This document shows, piece by piece, positions 46,975 through 55,630 of a stretch of DNA of 64,000 nt. The notes beneath the pieces are model-generated. The model saw only the letters and a list, made by a program, of their open reading frames with translations, did not search any database and had not been told where the DNA came from. The stretch covers positions 23,607-87,606 of IMG/VR virus record IMGVR_UViG_3300020152_000002. The stretch is one strand, 5' to 3'. This DNA comes from a virus. Position 1 is the first letter of the stretch. Each line of letters starts with the position of its first letter. Both the position numbers and the translations under genes were made by a program.

Positions 46975-48215
46975 TTGCCCTGTGCCCTTACCAGCGTCAC
47001 GCGCTTGGCCGCCCTCGTGAGGCCGGTGTATAGCCACTCTTTGTAGTTGCTGCCCGTCCAGTCGTCTAGGACGACGACGCTATCCCACTGGCTGCCCTGC
47101 GACTTGTGGACCGTCATGGCGTAGCCATAGGTCATCACGAGCGCCTGCGGTGTGCCGGACAGCATGGGCGTCCAGTGCTTGTCGAACTGGGGACGGCCTT
47201 CGAGTAGCGGATTGAGATGGATGAGCGCCAAGAACGGCTTGATGCTCGGATCGTCGAGCGACTTGATATGCGCCCGGTAGAACTGGTTGCCCTTCGTGTC
47301 GGCGAAATGCTCGCACTTGAGGACTTCCCATTGAGAGCCGTTCATCACCCCGACTTCGTAGTTGTTCTGCAAGCAGATCAACTTCTCGCCGGGTTCGAGC
47401 ACCTTGACGCGGCCTTTGAGCTTCCGCAGCGCGTTGTTCACCTGCGTCCGCATCTTGTTCGTGCCGCAGAGAACTTGGTCGAACTCGGCGTATTCCGCCA
47501 GCGACATCTTATCGACGATGGCGCTGTCCCCCATCTTCCCGTAGGGCAGTCGGCCGCCGTTGCGGACGTGGGTGGCGAGGCGCAGGACCGGGCTCCCGGC
47601 CGCCTGCCGGTGGACCTGCGTAAGCTCGATGTCGGCCGTGTAGCCCGGCGGGAAGAAGAACCCGGTGCCCATGATCGGCGGAAGCTGGCAGGGGTCGCCC
47701 ACGGCGAGCACAGGGAAGCCGTAGGACAGGGTGTCCTCGCCCAAGAAGCGGTCCACCATGGACACTTCGTCGAGCCCGAACGCCGTGGACCCGTGGAACT
47801 CCGATCCCAGCCGCTTGACGAAGCCGGGCGTCTGCATCGCCAACCGCATCTGTTCGAGCTTCGCTTCCTGCGTCGCCCGATCTGCGGGGTTGGTCATCGT
47901 TTCCAGCTTGGCGAGTTCTTCGCGGTAGTGCTTCACCGACGCACCGCGAGGCTCGTAGATCGTCTTGTGAATGGTCTCCGCCCCGTCGCACCCCTTCGAC
48001 CGGAGCACCATGGCCGCCTTCCCGGCGAATGCCATGAACTGCAACCGGCGTGACGTGCGCTTCTTCACTTCCTTGAGGATCGTCGTCTTGCCGGTCCCGG
48101 CAGCGCCGATCATTCGCATCACCTGCTGCTTGCGATCATAGGCGTAGTTGTCCAGCCAGTTGACGATCTTCGTCACGGCGGCTTCTTGAACTGGATCGAG
48201 CGTGATGTCGGCCAA
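46971..48215 (-). CDS. RecD/Dda-like SF1 DNA helicase
   Basis: A 414-residue helicase, TTG start at 48215 with GGAG 5 bases before. Walker A GAAGTGKT (37-44), motif II DEVSMVD (~150), motif III GDPCQLPPI (~172-180), and UvrD_C_2-like TVHKSQGSQWDSVVVL (~365-380) then YTGLTRAAKR (motif VI). It is a 5'-3' helicase of the RecD2/Dda type. Directly upstream of the nuclease gene with coupled translation. It may push the fork, restart it or act with the nuclease in end processing. Confidence 0.9.
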   Translation of the reverse strand: MADITLDPVQEAAVTKIVNWLDNYAYDRKQQVMRMIGAAGTGKTTILKEVKKRTSRRLQFMAFAGKAAMVLRSKGCDGAETIHKTIYEPRGASVKHYREELAKLETMTNPADRATQEAKLEQMRLAMQTPGFVKRLGSEFHGSTAFGLDEVSMVDRFLGEDTLSYGFPVLAVGDPCQLPPIMGTGFFFPPGYTADIELTQVHRQAAGSPVLRLATHVRNGGRLPYGKMGDSAIVDKMSLAEYAEFDQVLCGTNKMRTQVNNALRKLKGRVKVLEPGEKLICLQNNYEVGVMNGSQWEVLKCEHFADTKGNQFYRAHIKSLDDPSIKPFLALIHLNPLLEGRPQFDKHWTPMLSGTPQALVMTYGYAMTVHKSQGSQWDSVVVLDDWTGSNYKEWLYTGLTRAAKRVTLVRAQGK

Positions 48216-48915: not shown

Positions 48916-48946
48916 GGGGGTGATGTCCTGTGAGGCAGACGTGAAA

Positions 48947-48972
48947 AAGGCCCCGGATCGCTCCGGGGCCTT
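48947..48972 (-). terminator. strong minus-strand terminator after the 139-aa gene
   Basis: AAGGCCCCGGA (48947-48957) pairs with TCCGGGGCCTT (48962-48972), TCGC tetraloop, 11 bp; on the minus strand TTTTT follows directly. Confidence 0.85.
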
Positions 48973-49024
48973 CTCACGCTATGCCCTGACGGCCGGAGCC
49001 GTCAAGGGCGCAGGCGCAGGGGGA

Positions 49025-50250: not shown

Positions 50251-52761
50251 ATGACCGCAGCAGGATCGAACAAGCTCCCCCGACCATCCGCGTTGAAGCA
50301 GTATGCGGATGCGGGGTGGAAGTTCGTCCCATTGCACCACTGGGCTGAAACCCGGAAGCTGCCGCCGACACCGAAGCACCCTCAAGGTCGCACCCTCGAA
50401 CTGGGCAAAGCGCCCATCGGGAAGGCGTGGACGAAACACGGAGTCGATCTCAAGGCGGCCACGGCCCACGCCAACGCAGGCAAGAACGTCGGCGGCATGA
50501 TCCCGCCCGGCTGGGCGGTGATCGACGTTGACCCTCGGAACTTCAAAGGCGAGGACAATAGCTGGGAACGCTTTCAGGCTGATGTCGGGCTTGACCTGTC
50601 TAAATACGCGGCGGTCAAAACTGGTTCCGGCGGCTGGCACGTCTTCACGCGCATCCCGGAAAACTTCAAAGGCGTCGTCAAGATCGAAGCCTACCCCGGC
50701 ATCGAGTTCAAGCAGATCGGCGTTCAGGTCGTCGCGGCCGGTTCGATCCACCCGAAGACGCAGGGCTACTACGAGTGGATGGACAGCACGGTCTCGCTCG
50801 CCGAGACGGCATACGTCCCCGACAAGGTGCTCGAACTCTACAAGGTCACGCGCCCGCTGATCTCGGGATCGCAGGGCGGCGACACATGGGGCAGCCTGAC
50901 CGTCGATCAGATCGAAGAAGGTCTCGGCCTTCTGGACCCGACGCAGTTCCAATCTCACGACGACTGGTTCGGGCTTATGTGCTCGGTCCACTGGCTGTCC
51001 GGCGGCGAAGCGCGGCAGCAGTTCGTCGAGTGGTCCGCGCAAGACCCGTCTTACGCCGACCAGATGGAACACGTCGCAATGCGCTGGGACACCCTTGGCC
51101 GGGGTGCGGCGTCCGCGCAGTTGGTCGCGCGTGGCGGACAGTTCTTCAAGGCGCTCAAGCAACACGCCGGGGTGGAGCCTCACGACGGCCGGTTCGCGCT
51201 CAAAGTGGAGCGCGCCTTCACCGATCTGTCGCCGGAGGAACTGAACGAAGACCTGAAACTGATCGGCGCGAAGAACGAGCGCGTCCGCGAGGAAGCCTAT
51301 CAGTCCGCCGAAGCTATCGTCGATGCGCTGAACGAGAAGCACTTCGTGCTGAACTATCGCGGTAAGACGGTCATCGGAACGAAGCGCCGGGTCGAAGAAA
51401 AGAACGGCGTCTACGACAAATACGAGTTCCAAGACGCAGCCAGCTTCAAGCTGTTCTACTCGAACCAGAAGATGCCGGATGGCGTCAGCTATGGCGAGTA
51501 TTGGTTGGCGGCCAAGCACCGTCGCACATACGACGGCTTCGACTTCCGGCCCGACGAGCCGCCCGGCGCGTATCGCACGATGTCGGGTGAACTGATCCTG
51601 AACCAGTGGACCGGCTTTGCCATCCAGCCCGCGCCGGGCGACTGGTCCATGTTCGACGATCTGCTGCTGAACATCATCTGCGGCGGCGATCAGATCAAAT
51701 ATCAGTTCCTCTTGAACTGGTGCGCGCACACCTACCAGAAGCTCTCGGGGCCGGTCGGCGTCGCCGTCGCGCTCAAGGGGAAGAAGGGCACCGGCAAAAC
51801 GTCCTTCTGGAAGGTCTGGTCACGGCCGTTCGGTCCTACGCACTCCATGACGACCGCCAAGATGGAGAGCGTGTTCGGTCAGCACAACGGTCGAATGCAC
51901 GCAAAGATCGCTGTCGGGTTGGAAGAAGCCTATTTCGCCGGGTCGAAAATGGCGGAAGCTCAACTCAAGGATTTGATCACAGGCGATACGTTCGGCATCA
52001 ATGAGAAGTTCCTGCCGGAATACGCGCAAACGAACCATACCAAACTCGTCGTGATGACGAACGACGACTGGGCCGTCCCGGCGACAGAAGACGAACGGCG
52101 GTATTTCGTTACGGAGACCACGACGGGCCGGAAGGATGATCACACCTTCTGGACTGCCTTCAACGAGCAGATGTATGAGAAGGGCGGCTGCGAAGCGTTC
52201 TTCTACGACATGCTCCGCAGGGACATCAGTGGCTTCAACCCCTACCGAGACGTGCCGCGCACCGAGGAACTACTAGGCCAGATCGAGATTACGCGCGGCC
52301 CGATCATCGACTGGCTGCAAGAACGCATGACGTTCGGAGAATACGGCTTCGGCTATGCGTGGTCGAGCAGTAAAGGGTGGGCGGTCCCGAAGGCTGAACT
52401 TTGGGAAGACTTCAAGGCGTGGCAGATCAACTCCCCCCGTGGCCGATACGATAGCTCGATCCGCTCGCAGAACCAGTTCACCCGAGAGCTTAAACGGGTG
52501 ATCCCCGAGGAACTGTTCAAGGCCACCACGGCGATCCCGCCGCCGGAGTATCAGGCGTCCGTGAAGACCTACGCGGCGACGATCAACGGCACGACCTACC
52601 ATCTCTCAAACGTGTTCCGCTTCCCCTCGTTCGACACCTTGAAGAATGCTGTCGCGGCGAAGTATGGGATACACTTCCAAGAGATCGACCTGTCGGACAT
52701 TGAGATCACCGACGCGGACGACATATCAACATTCAGCATCGACGAGTGGGACATTCTATAA
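50251..52761 (+). CDS. primase-polymerase/SF3-type helicase
   Basis: An 836-residue replication initiator. N-terminal Prim-Pol (bifunctional primase/polymerase) domain: AVIDVDPRN with Asp92 and Asp94, then SGGWHVF (~125-131) and an EAYPGIEFKQIG..GSIHP segment. After a helical linker comes an ATPase of the D5/DUF5906 type: Walker A GKKGTGKTS (~510-518), an acidic box (VGLEEAYFAG ~552) and an N-terminal-of-sensor segment KLVVMTNDDWAVP. The protein ends in SIDEWDIL. No ribosome binding site is visible before ATG 50251. Starts leading/lagging strands and unwinds DNA. It is the first gene of a plus-strand island. Confidence 0.85.
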   Translation: MTAAGSNKLPRPSALKQYADAGWKFVPLHHWAETRKLPPTPKHPQGRTLELGKAPIGKAWTKHGVDLKAATAHANAGKNVGGMIPPGWAVIDVDPRNFKGEDNSWERFQADVGLDLSKYAAVKTGSGGWHVFTRIPENFKGVVKIEAYPGIEFKQIGVQVVAAGSIHPKTQGYYEWMDSTVSLAETAYVPDKVLELYKVTRPLISGSQGGDTWGSLTVDQIEEGLGLLDPTQFQSHDDWFGLMCSVHWLSGGEARQQFVEWSAQDPSYADQMEHVAMRWDTLGRGAASAQLVARGGQFFKALKQHAGVEPHDGRFALKVERAFTDLSPEELNEDLKLIGAKNERVREEAYQSAEAIVDALNEKHFVLNYRGKTVIGTKRRVEEKNGVYDKYEFQDAASFKLFYSNQKMPDGVSYGEYWLAAKHRRTYDGFDFRPDEPPGAYRTMSGELILNQWTGFAIQPAPGDWSMFDDLLLNIICGGDQIKYQFLLNWCAHTYQKLSGPVGVAVALKGKKGTGKTSFWKVWSRPFGPTHSMTTAKMESVFGQHNGRMHAKIAVGLEEAYFAGSKMAEAQLKDLITGDTFGINEKFLPEYAQTNHTKLVVMTNDDWAVPATEDERRYFVTETTTGRKDDHTFWTAFNEQMYEKGGCEAFFYDMLRRDISGFNPYRDVPRTEELLGQIEITRGPIIDWLQERMTFGEYGFGYAWSSSKGWAVPKAELWEDFKAWQINSPRGRYDSSIRSQNQFTRELKRVIPEELFKATTAIPPPEYQASVKTYAATINGTTYHLSNVFRFPSFDTLKNAVAAKYGIHFQEIDLSDIEITDADDISTFSIDEWDIL

Positions 52762-54923
52762 TGACCAACAGCAACTACCTTTCTGGACCGTCCACTCGGG
52801 CGCAGGTGGTGACACGCCGCACCTACAATCGCCCGCTCGACGAAGCTGGGGGCATCTTCGAGACGTGGGAACAGACGGTGGATCGCGTCATCGGGCACCA
52901 GCGGTGGCTGTGGGAGCGCGCTGTCGAGCGGGAACTGACGCTCGAAGAAGACGCCGAACTGACGGTTCTGCGGAAACTGATGGTCGAACGCAAGGTCACG
53001 ACTTCGGGTCGCACCCTCTGGCTCGGCGGGACCAACATCGCCAAGACGCGCGAAGCGTCGCAGTTCAACTGTTCTTTCCTGCGCGTCGAGACCGTCAGCG
53101 ACATCGCGGATGGGTTCTGGCTGCTGTTGCAGGGCTGCGGCGTCGGATTCGAGCCGATCACCGGCGTCCTGAACGGCTTCGCGTCGGAAGTGGAGCTTGA
53201 GATCATCCCTTCGACGCGCACCGAGAAGGGCGGACGCGAGACCAACAAGGAGACGTTCAAGAACGGCGTCTGGACCATCAGCATCGGCGACAGCGCAATG
53301 GCGTGGGCCAAGGCTGCGGCCAAGGTGCTCGCCGCCAAGCGCCGCGTCCGTAAGCTGGTCCTCGACTTCTCCGAGATCAGGCCCGCCGGGCTGCGCCTGA
53401 ACGGTTATGGCTGGATCAGCAGCGGCTACGAACCGTTCGCCAAGGCCATGACCGCCATCGTCGATCTGATGAACCGGCGCGTCGGGCAAATCCTGTCCCG
53501 GATCGACATTCTGGACGTGATGAACCTGCTGGGCACCACCCTGTCGTCGCGCCGGTCGGCCGAGATCGCGGTGATCCCGTGGGTGGACCCGGAGTCCGAG
53601 CCCTTCGCCGTCGCCAAGCGCGACTACTTCGCCTACTACGGCCGCGACCACTTCTCGAAGGACGAGCGCAAACCCGTCCCGGTTTATGGCTCCGCCGACC
53701 TGTCCGGCGAGCCGGTGCGTCACTTCCAACCCGGCGCACAGATCATGCCGTGGGGCAGCGAAGAAGACGGCGCTATCCTCGTCGGCGAGAACGAATGGGT
53801 TAGCGCGGCCGACGTGTATCAGCCGTATATCCAGCGCGCCCAGTCCAACAACTCGCTGATCTTCTACGACCGTCCGACCCGCTATGAACTGTTCTACGTC
53901 TTCGACCTGATGGCGAAGGGTGGCGGTTCTGAACCGGGCTTCATCAACGGCCGTGAAGCGCACCGCCGGGCTCCGTGGTTCAAGGGCGTCAATCCCTGCG
54001 CCGAAATCCTGCTGGGCAACAAGTCGTTCTGCAATCTCGTCGAGACCGACGCCGGGAAGTTCAACGGCGATCTGGAAGGGCTGCAACAGGCCCTCTATCT
54101 GGCGGGCCGCGCGAACTACCGTCAGACCTGTGTCGATCTGCGCGACGAAGTGCTGCAAGCCTCGTGGCACGAACTGAACACCTTCCTCCGCCTCTGTGGC
54201 GTCGGCCTGACCGGCATCGTCCGCTGGGAGGGCCACAACGACCCCGAGCAAATCCGGCTGTTGCGTCAGGCAGCGCAGGAAGGCGCTCACTCCATGGCCG
54301 ATGAACTGGGCCTGACGCGCTCGAAGGCGATCACCACGATCAAGCCGTCCGGCACCCTGTCGAAGATCATGGACACGACCGAAGGCATTCACCGCCCGCT
54401 CGGCCGCTACGTCTTCAACAACATCAACTTCTCGAAGTTCGATCCGATCATCCCGCGTTTGAAGGCGGCTGGCTACAAAGTCTTCGACAGCCCGGTTGAC
54501 GATACCGCCGTGCTGGTCTGTTTCCCTGTCTGCTATGAAGATGTCGATTTCGACGTGGTGGACGGCAAGGACGTGAACCTTGAGACTGCCGTTCAGCAGT
54601 TGGAACGCTACAAGCTGTGGATGGACAACTACGTCGATCACAACTGTTCCATCACCATCAGCTACTCCCCGGACGAAGTTCCGGCGATCATCGACTGGCT
54701 GCTGGAAAACTGGTCCCACTATGTCGGCGTGTCCTTCATCTACCGCAACGATCCGACCAAGACAGCGGCCGATCTCGGCTACCAATACCTGCCGCAGGAA
54801 GTCGTGACGCGGGAAGTCTACGAAGACTATCTCGCCATCCTGTCGCCGCTGGACTGGACCGGCACCGAGTCCTTCGACGAGATCGCCGATCCCTGTTCGA
54901 CGGGAGCCTGCCCGATCAAGTAG
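52761..54923 (+). CDS. nrdJ: adenosylcobalamin-dependent (class II) ribonucleotide reductase
   Basis: A 720-residue monomeric RTPR-type enzyme converting ribonucleotides to deoxyribonucleotides. Conserved features: FNCSF with Cys104 (redox pair), NPCAEI with Asn411, the thiyl Cys413 and Glu415, SFCNLV with Cys424 (redox partner), and a C-terminal cysteine pair Cys712 and Cys717 (DPCSTGAC) that reloads the active site. Needs coenzyme B12, so it works without oxygen and without a partner subunit, but the cofactor must come from the host. The ATG overlaps the primase TAA. No cobalamin riboswitch is seen before it. Confidence 0.95.
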   Translation: MTNSNYLSGPSTRAQVVTRRTYNRPLDEAGGIFETWEQTVDRVIGHQRWLWERAVERELTLEEDAELTVLRKLMVERKVTTSGRTLWLGGTNIAKTREASQFNCSFLRVETVSDIADGFWLLLQGCGVGFEPITGVLNGFASEVELEIIPSTRTEKGGRETNKETFKNGVWTISIGDSAMAWAKAAAKVLAAKRRVRKLVLDFSEIRPAGLRLNGYGWISSGYEPFAKAMTAIVDLMNRRVGQILSRIDILDVMNLLGTTLSSRRSAEIAVIPWVDPESEPFAVAKRDYFAYYGRDHFSKDERKPVPVYGSADLSGEPVRHFQPGAQIMPWGSEEDGAILVGENEWVSAADVYQPYIQRAQSNNSLIFYDRPTRYELFYVFDLMAKGGGSEPGFINGREAHRRAPWFKGVNPCAEILLGNKSFCNLVETDAGKFNGDLEGLQQALYLAGRANYRQTCVDLRDEVLQASWHELNTFLRLCGVGLTGIVRWEGHNDPEQIRLLRQAAQEGAHSMADELGLTRSKAITTIKPSGTLSKIMDTTEGIHRPLGRYVFNNINFSKFDPIIPRLKAAGYKVFDSPVDDTAVLVCFPVCYEDVDFDVVDGKDVNLETAVQQLERYKLWMDNYVDHNCSITISYSPDEVPAIIDWLLENWSHYVGVSFIYRNDPTKTAADLGYQYLPQEVVTREVYEDYLAILSPLDWTGTESFDEIADPCSTGACPIK

Positions 54924-55013: not shown

Positions 55014-55253
55014 ATGATCGACACGCCGACCAAGAGCCGCCTGCGCCGGTTTTTCGACCGATGGGAGGAACAGGTGGACCGCTGGGCGATGAGCCCGTGG
55101 ACCAGCCTCCATATCTGGACCTTCGGGGTGCTCTGGATCGTCACCGAGGCCCTGCGCGGGAAGATGATCGGCTGGGATGGCGTCGCCACGCTGGCGGCGC
55201 TTGAGATCGCCCTGTCTATTCGCAGGCACCAGCGACGACACGATCCCGGTTGA
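55014..55253 (+). CDS. small membrane protein (79 aa)
   Basis: A basic N-terminus (TPTKSRLRRFFDRWEEQ) is followed by a hydrophobic helix (about residues 30-47, SLHIWTFGVLWIVTEAL) and a second weak one (55-68). The ATG at 55014 has GGGGAC 4 bases upstream; an ATG at 55002 is possible. The stop TGA lies inside the TTGACA of the promoter at 55250. This type of small membrane protein often resembles low-affinity iron permease domains, but similarity here is not convincing. Function unknown. Confidence 0.5.
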   Translation: MIDTPTKSRLRRFFDRWEEQVDRWAMSPWTSLHIWTFGVLWIVTEALRGKMIGWDGVATLAALEIALSIRRHQRRHDPG

Positions 55254-55278
55254 CAGCCTCCGGCCGCTCCGGCATACA
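55250..55278 (+). promoter_or_regulatory. candidate sigma70-like promoter for a non-coding transcript
   Basis: TTGACA (55250-55255), 17 bases, CATACA (55273-55278). The -35 is perfect and the -10 moderate. Transcription would start near 55285 and run to the double terminator at 55572-55630 without any credible gene in between. Confidence 0.5.
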
Positions 55279-55284
55279 GATCGC

Positions 55285-55630
55285 TCGTCGTGGCCTTCCA
55301 GCCCGTTGCGACACGGAACTGGATCAAGACGAGCGAGGCGGTTGCCGGACACGAAGCCGGAGGCCCCGAGCACAGGATCAGGGACGAGCCAAGTAGCCCT
55401 GATCTGACACTCCACCCGTCGCCCTCTACGGAGCGCGGTTCGGGAGAGTGGAGACCGGGACGGGACGACGACGGACTGGGCGAAGGGACTGCAAAGCCTC
55501 GGACCCCGACACGAAGCTCTCCCGTCCGGTTTCGCCCTCGCAGCCGGGCTACAATAGGCAGCCAGACATACGAAGCCCCGGTCGTCCGCAGACGCCGGGG
55601 CTTCACTGTTTCTCGGGCTTGCCCGATTTC
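55285..55630 (+). ncRNA. candidate structured non-coding RNA gene (~345 nt)
   Basis: No plausible protein is encoded on either strand: the only long plus frame runs straight through the terminator and has no binding site. The stretch starts after a TTGACA promoter and ends in a double-hairpin terminator. Strong pairing is visible: ACCGGGACGGGA (55454-55465) with TCCCGTCCGGT (55520-55530), 11 pairs with one bulged G, and CTCCAC (55410-55415) with GTGGAG (55448-55453). No homology to a known RNA family is recognised. It could regulate the convergent minus-strand genes or be a replication-associated RNA. Evidence is structural only. Confidence 0.45.
55572..55630 (+). terminator. double-hairpin terminator of the candidate ncRNA
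   Basis: GAAGCCCCGG (55572-55581) pairs with CCGGGGCTTC (55595-55604); then CGGG-CTTG-CCCG (55614-55625) followed by ATTTC. The same two-hairpin design ends the late operon at 37616-37674. Confidence 0.75.

What the first reader, a model, noticed from the sequence alone, without database searches (positions are those of the whole stretch)
55250..55630. Unassigned transcription unit that looks like a phage non-coding RNA
Nearly 350 bases after nrdJ and the small membrane gene have no credible coding frame, yet begin with TTGACA-N17-CATACA and end in a double-hairpin terminator identical in design to that of the late operon. Internal stems of 11 bp (one bulge) and 6 bp are present. Phages rarely leave this much unused sequence, so a regulatory or anti-defence RNA is a reasonable idea.
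Basis: partly seen in the sequence, partly recalled or inferred. Interest (0 to 1): 0.7.

Follow-up and report, generated by a model that had tools for sequence, protein, structure and literature searches.

The report
Structured non-coding RNA of Brevundimonas phages
Between two oppositely directed gene blocks, a group of Brevundimonas phages carries an unannotated gene for a roughly 320-nucleotide folded RNA whose shape is kept by paired mutations, and one member has a domain in it that also occurs in an RNA of unrelated giant Caulobacter phages; what the RNA does is not yet known.

Summary
[quoted passage not shown] At 55250-55630 there is a TTGACA-N17-CATA promoter-like start, about 300 nt of structured sequence and two terminator-like hairpins. 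Five isolates share the interval at about 87% identity (mean of the aligned record about 80%), and none annotates it. Frame-breaking indels and a 124-nt insertion rule out a shared protein. Between window and Delta, 9 base pairs changed on both sides and kept pairing; structures slid by 1-3 columns give none. G-U pairs (11 cells) against A-C (0) point to RNA read from the + strand. No Rfam family matches, and I found no convincing homologue in about 80 nrdJ loci or 80 topoisomerase loci of viral contigs, nor in 150 Caulobacterales genomes.

New: phage Leszy's copy carries an inserted four-way-junction domain. Its central hairpin is identical over 28 nt to one in an unannotated 348-nt RNA in the tRNA cluster of Bertelyvirus jumbo phages, where the same fold covaries.

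Best reading: an independently transcribed, trans-acting structured RNA that works through its fold on a Caulobacterales host factor. The RNA gene is well supported (about 0.9); the mechanism is inferred (about 0.4). Rivals: base-pairing sRNA, 3' UTR/terminator element, replication or packaging element.

The parts
55250..55278 (+). promoter-like site TTGACA-N17-CATACA
   Evidence: Hexamer and spacer kept in 5 isolates while the upstream stop codon moved; a similar TTGACG..CTCCGGCCG..GCATA site is conserved at 49005 on the - strand
55281..55336 (+). P1/P2 hairpin: P1 55281-55289/55328-55336; P2 55297-55306/55313-55323
   Evidence: Two compensated pairs in each of P1 and P2
55345..55360 (+). P3 hairpin CCGG/CCGG with 8-nt loop
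   Evidence: Stem invariant in all copies, so no covariation test possible
55373..55406 (+). P4 hairpin with bulged G and invariant loop GAGCCAAGTAG
   Evidence: A-U/G-U/G-C series and G-C to A-U change
55406..55407 (+). site where Leszy (L004:3411-3534) carries a 124-nt four-way-junction domain; absent from the window
   Evidence: 28 nt identical to Bertelyvirus RNA
55408..55450 (+). P5 hairpin
   Evidence: Two compensated pairs
55454..55530 (+). P6 long stem with bulge (11 bp in the window), enclosing P7 55476-55481/55496-55502
   Evidence: C-G to A-U change; Leszy's CG insertion in the 3' strand is matched by pairing bases in the 5' strand
55478..55537 (+). alternative pseudoknot GGGCGAA 55478-55484 with TTCGCCC 55531-55537, competing with P7
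   Evidence: Pairing kept in all copies by G-C/G-U changes only; unproven
55543..55559 (+). P8 hairpin with 11-nt loop (A/G)GGCYACAATA
   Evidence: Stem differs in three lineages (GCC/GGC, CAGC/GCTG, CCGC/GCGG) and still pairs, read by eye; loop GGCYAC could pair with GUGGCC 55290-55295
55572..55604 (+). terminator-like hairpin 1
   Evidence: Stem retained with changed sequence in relatives
55613..55630 (+). terminator-like hairpin 2, CGGGCTTGCCCG then TTTC

Best explanation
The interval is an independent RNA gene of the Delta-like Brevundimonas phages. Host RNA polymerase starts near 55284-55287 and stops at the paired hairpins (55604 or 55630), giving an RNA of about 320-345 nt made of at least six hairpins. 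I infer that it acts in trans through its three-dimensional fold, as a decoy or scaffold bound by a host protein or ribonucleoprotein conserved in Caulobacterales, rather than through a long exposed antisense seed. Shown: gene boundaries, conservation, + strand RNA structure and lack of coding. Inferred: transcription, the trans-acting role and the host target.
For: Conserved promoter-like site and terminators. 9 pairs changed on both sides between window and Delta, with none for any structure slid by 1-3 columns; control shuffles reach the observed score 0/500 (5' half) and 7/500 (3' half). G-U 11 cells against A-C 0 cells gives the strand. Core identity 87% against about 80% for the aligned record. 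Leszy's 124-nt insertion sits exactly between two hairpins, folds on its own (z -7.0) and has a homologous covarying domain in a Bertelyvirus RNA of phages that infect Caulobacter; such grafting of whole domains fits a structural RNA acting on something both host genera share. Base-pairing target search in Delta not significant.
Against: No transcript has been seen. Only four to five distinct sequences exist, in two main lineages, so each compensated pair reflects few events. Overall fold energy is only modestly better than shuffled sequence for window and Delta. No protein partner is known. The -10 box (CATACA/CATAAC) is weak.
Confidence: 0.42

Rival explanations
1. A base-pairing small RNA: conserved loops such as GAGCCAAGUAG or the P8 loop GGCYACAAUA pair with phage or host messages and change their translation or decay.
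For: Loops are the most conserved unpaired parts; most characterised phage sRNAs work this way (general knowledge).
Against: Best duplexes with 119 Delta start regions are no better than with shuffled segments, except one segment at 0.05 before correction for seven tests. Its target gene DELTA_104 has no homologue in the window, which covers only part of the record. Host messages were not tested.
Confidence: 0.22
2. A 3' untranslated, terminator or stability element of the upstream primase-nrd operon, between two convergent operons, with no separate transcript.
For: It lies straight after the last gene of the operon, the only terminator-like sites are at its far end, and convergent operons meet here.
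Against: A conserved TTGACA site stands at its head, separate from the stop codon in relatives. A terminator needs one hairpin, not six covarying ones; Leszy's inserted domain is unexplained.
Confidence: 0.2
3. A replication-control or packaging element: an RNA primer or counter-transcribed RNA at an origin, or a structured DNA site.
For: RNA-based origins are known in phages (PMC7157519); the interval lies near primase and nrd genes.
Against: G-U pairs are kept and A-C pairs are not, which points to RNA rather than DNA. No GC-skew extremum here.
Confidence: 0.08
4. Protein-coding sequence missed by annotators.
For: Long open frames in the window.
Against: Indels of 1, 1, 2, 4 and 22 nt and a 124-nt insertion break every shared frame; changes follow base pairing.
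Confidence: 0.02

Closest known systems
Unannotated 348-nt RNA in the tRNA cluster of Bertelyvirus jumbo phages (L312:2734-3081, L314, L315)
   Same: Length, an RNR gene of the phage in the neighbourhood, Caulobacterales hosts; its 3' domain is homologous to Leszy's inserted domain (same four-way junction, invariant GUCA-stem-UGAGGCUAG-stem-GGCGA)
   Different: The window's own RNA lacks that domain, and covariance models of it do not match the Bertelyvirus RNA
GOLLD and ROOL RNAs
   Same: Large, elaborately folded RNAs of phages with unknown function (PMC12286853)
   Different: 659 to over 800 nt, often near tRNA islands; no Rfam match here at curated thresholds; no tRNA in the window
Phage-encoded regulatory sRNAs
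   Same: Separate transcript with promoter and terminator
   Different: Usually shorter with an exposed seed (general knowledge); no target found here
phi29-type packaging RNA
   Same: Structured phage RNA
   Different: No Rfam match; this is a siphophage with small and large terminase genes

Membership tests
any family in Rfam 15 | score at or above the family's gathering threshold | tested here: not met
   No match in the whole window; best hits at E up to 10 are far below thresholds
GOLLD / ROOL | covariance-model match | tested here: not met
GOLLD / ROOL | homo-oligomeric RNA cage | not testable with these tools
   needs cryo-EM
tmRNA or tRNA | ARAGORN or Rfam match | tested here: not met
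   the same searches did find a permuted tmRNA and tRNAs in L312
phage base-pairing sRNA | conserved complementarity to a target message | tested here: inconclusive
   Phage messages of Delta only; host not tested
phage base-pairing sRNA | discrete transcript | not testable with these tools
   no RNA-seq available
Bertelyvirus tRNA-cluster RNA | four-way-junction domain with invariant UGAGGCUAG hairpin | tested here: not met
   Met in Leszy only; absent from the window and the other four isolates

The most novel reading that the evidence does not exclude
Unrelated phages of Caulobacterales share a pool of exchangeable structured RNA domains. The Delta-group RNA and the Bertelyvirus tRNA-cluster RNA are built from such domains and act as RNA decoys or scaffolds on the same host machinery (translation, RNA decay or defence), a kind of phage RNA effector not described before.
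Probability: 0.15. Interest if true: 0.9.

Novelty: new variant of a known kind. Interest (0 to 1): 0.6.

Why it matters
It adds a covariation-supported RNA family, absent from Rfam, to phages of a bacterial order that is a model for cell-cycle control. The domain shared between an 86-kb siphophage and 310-kb jumbo phages suggests that phages trade RNA domains as they trade genes. Cultured phages and hosts exist (Delta on B. subvibrioides, Leszy on B. pondensis, RB23 on C. vibrioides CB15), so deletion and pull-down tests are direct.

Tried and rejected
Rfam at gathering and permissive thresholds: nothing credible. The exact loop pattern GAGCCAAGTAGCCC in viral contigs gave only chance hits. 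The core pattern GGGCGANNGGACTGNAAAGCC gave one viral and eight genome hits, all chance by profile score and by reading. Covariance models on 80 topoisomerase-bearing viral loci plus Rhodobacter and Roseobacter phages: nothing. R1 on 150 Caulobacterales genomes: nothing. R2: one weak hit (27 bits, L311) that matches only part of the fold with the P1/P2 region collapsed, treated as chance. No plasmid match. IMG/VR hits of the UGAGGCUAG motif: two jumbo-phage records already known, and L318, whose flanking stem does not pair. Viral-contig searches with the primase and with a narrow topoisomerase alignment found no relatives.

Full report
The window is bases 23607-87606 of an 87.6-kb virus record. 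Its closest named relatives are the Brevundimonas siphophages Delta, BabaJaga, Fanboy, Leszy and Poludnitsa. In all of them the finding's interval lies between a rightward operon (primase, ribonucleotide reductase, small gene) and a leftward operon (small genes, topoisomerase-like, ThyX) and carries no annotation (the Poludnitsa record is cut just upstream). The paper describing Delta places a module boundary here and has no occurrence of ncRNA or sRNA in its text (PMC9437464).

Observation. The start site is statistically unremarkable alone. It is conserved, however, and in relatives the upstream gene stops at a TAG before the hexamer, so the hexamer is not kept for the stop codon. A conserved site of similar make-up (TTGACGGCTCCGGCCGTCAGGGCATA) occurs at 49005 on the - strand and at the same place in Delta.

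Not a protein. Long frames are open by composition. Against relatives there are indels of 4, 1, 1, 2 and 22 nt, and in Leszy a 124-nt insertion, so no frame is shared.

A structured RNA. I named a structure from the sequences and counted it. In the 5' half (55279-55406) 95.6% of cells pair, 6 pairs change on both sides, none do so when partners are slid, and 0/500 shuffles reach the score. In the 3' half (55407-55575) 98.5% pair, 3 pairs change on both sides against 0 when slid, and 7/500 shuffles reach the score. Because the structure was derived from these sequences, the paired percentage is biased upward; the two-sided changes are the better measure. Across both halves, G-U appears in 11 cells and A-C in none, so the RNA is read from the + strand. 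P8 and terminator 1 also keep pairing with changed letters, read by eye. A pseudoknot (55478-55484 with 55531-55537) and a loop-loop contact (55290-55295 with 55547-55552) are possible and unproven. The RNA core is 87% identical to Delta, against about 80% over the aligned record. Fold energy is a weak witness: z -2.8, -2.0 and -7.2 for window, Delta and Leszy.

Range. No Rfam family matches. Profile and covariance searches found no copy outside the Delta group in the nrdJ loci or in the topoisomerase loci and RcRudolph and RDJL Phi 2 loci. Searches of 150 Caulobacterales genomes were empty for R1 and gave one weak, partial hit for R2. The R1 tool output warns that an empty answer without a positive control in that set shows little.

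The Leszy insertion. Between P4 and P5 Leszy has 124 extra nt that fold into a long stem and a four-way junction. Its central 28 nt occur exactly in six Bertelyvirus jumbo phages, in an unannotated 348-nt stretch between two tRNA-Met genes. Related phages CcrSC and CcrBL9 have the same stretch at 89-90% identity. There the domain has the same junction, the loop GAGGCUA is unchanged, and the flanking stem changes as GGGGUU/GACCCC, GGGACU/GGUCCC, GGGAUU/GGUCCC. So the domain is a real RNA element found in two unrelated phage groups with hosts in one bacterial order. The motif was absent from 398 Caulobacterales genomes by exact pattern.

Mechanism. I favour a trans-acting RNA working through its fold on a host factor (0.42), because it is a separate unit, its loops are conserved within a covarying frame, no target pairing stood out, and one member shares a ready-made domain with an RNA of phages of a related host. 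The step from RNA gene to host factor is inference, and the direction of the domain's transfer is not known. A base-pairing sRNA (0.22) and a 3' UTR element (0.20) remain open; host messages were not tested and no transcript data were available.

Noticed in passing
window 52746-54923: The window has a single class II (B12-dependent) reductase gene nrdJ exactly where the relatives have class I nrdB and nrdA, with the downstream small gene and RNA unchanged: a clean swap of reductase class.
   Followed up: partly
L312:2046-2478: Unannotated permuted tmRNA (tag VNASNDNDVVVSTMTSVKLAA) in Caulobacter jumbo phage RB23, also matched by Rfam RF04321 at 73.9 bits.
   Followed up: partly
L312:2734-3081, L314, L315: Unannotated 348-nt structured RNA (fold z -6.1) between two tRNA-Met genes of Bertelyvirus phages, with covariation in its 3' four-way junction.
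   Followed up: partly
window 48935-49005, - strand: Conserved promoter-like TTGACGGCTCCGGCCGTCAGGGCATA followed at once by a strong terminator-like hairpin GGCCCCGGAGCGATCCGGGGCC-TTTTT upstream of the MazG-like gene: possible attenuator or very short RNA.
   Followed up: partly
window-wide, e.g. 12360, 21298, 37657, 55614, 59715: The palindrome CGGGCTTGCCCG recurs 16 times with up to one mismatch (1.1 expected), probably a shared terminator element.
   Followed up: no
Delta 1-605 and 47379-47537 (L309): Other intergenic stretches of Delta fold much better than shuffled sequence (z about -5 for 1-605; -5.5 on the - strand for 47379-47537).
   Followed up: no
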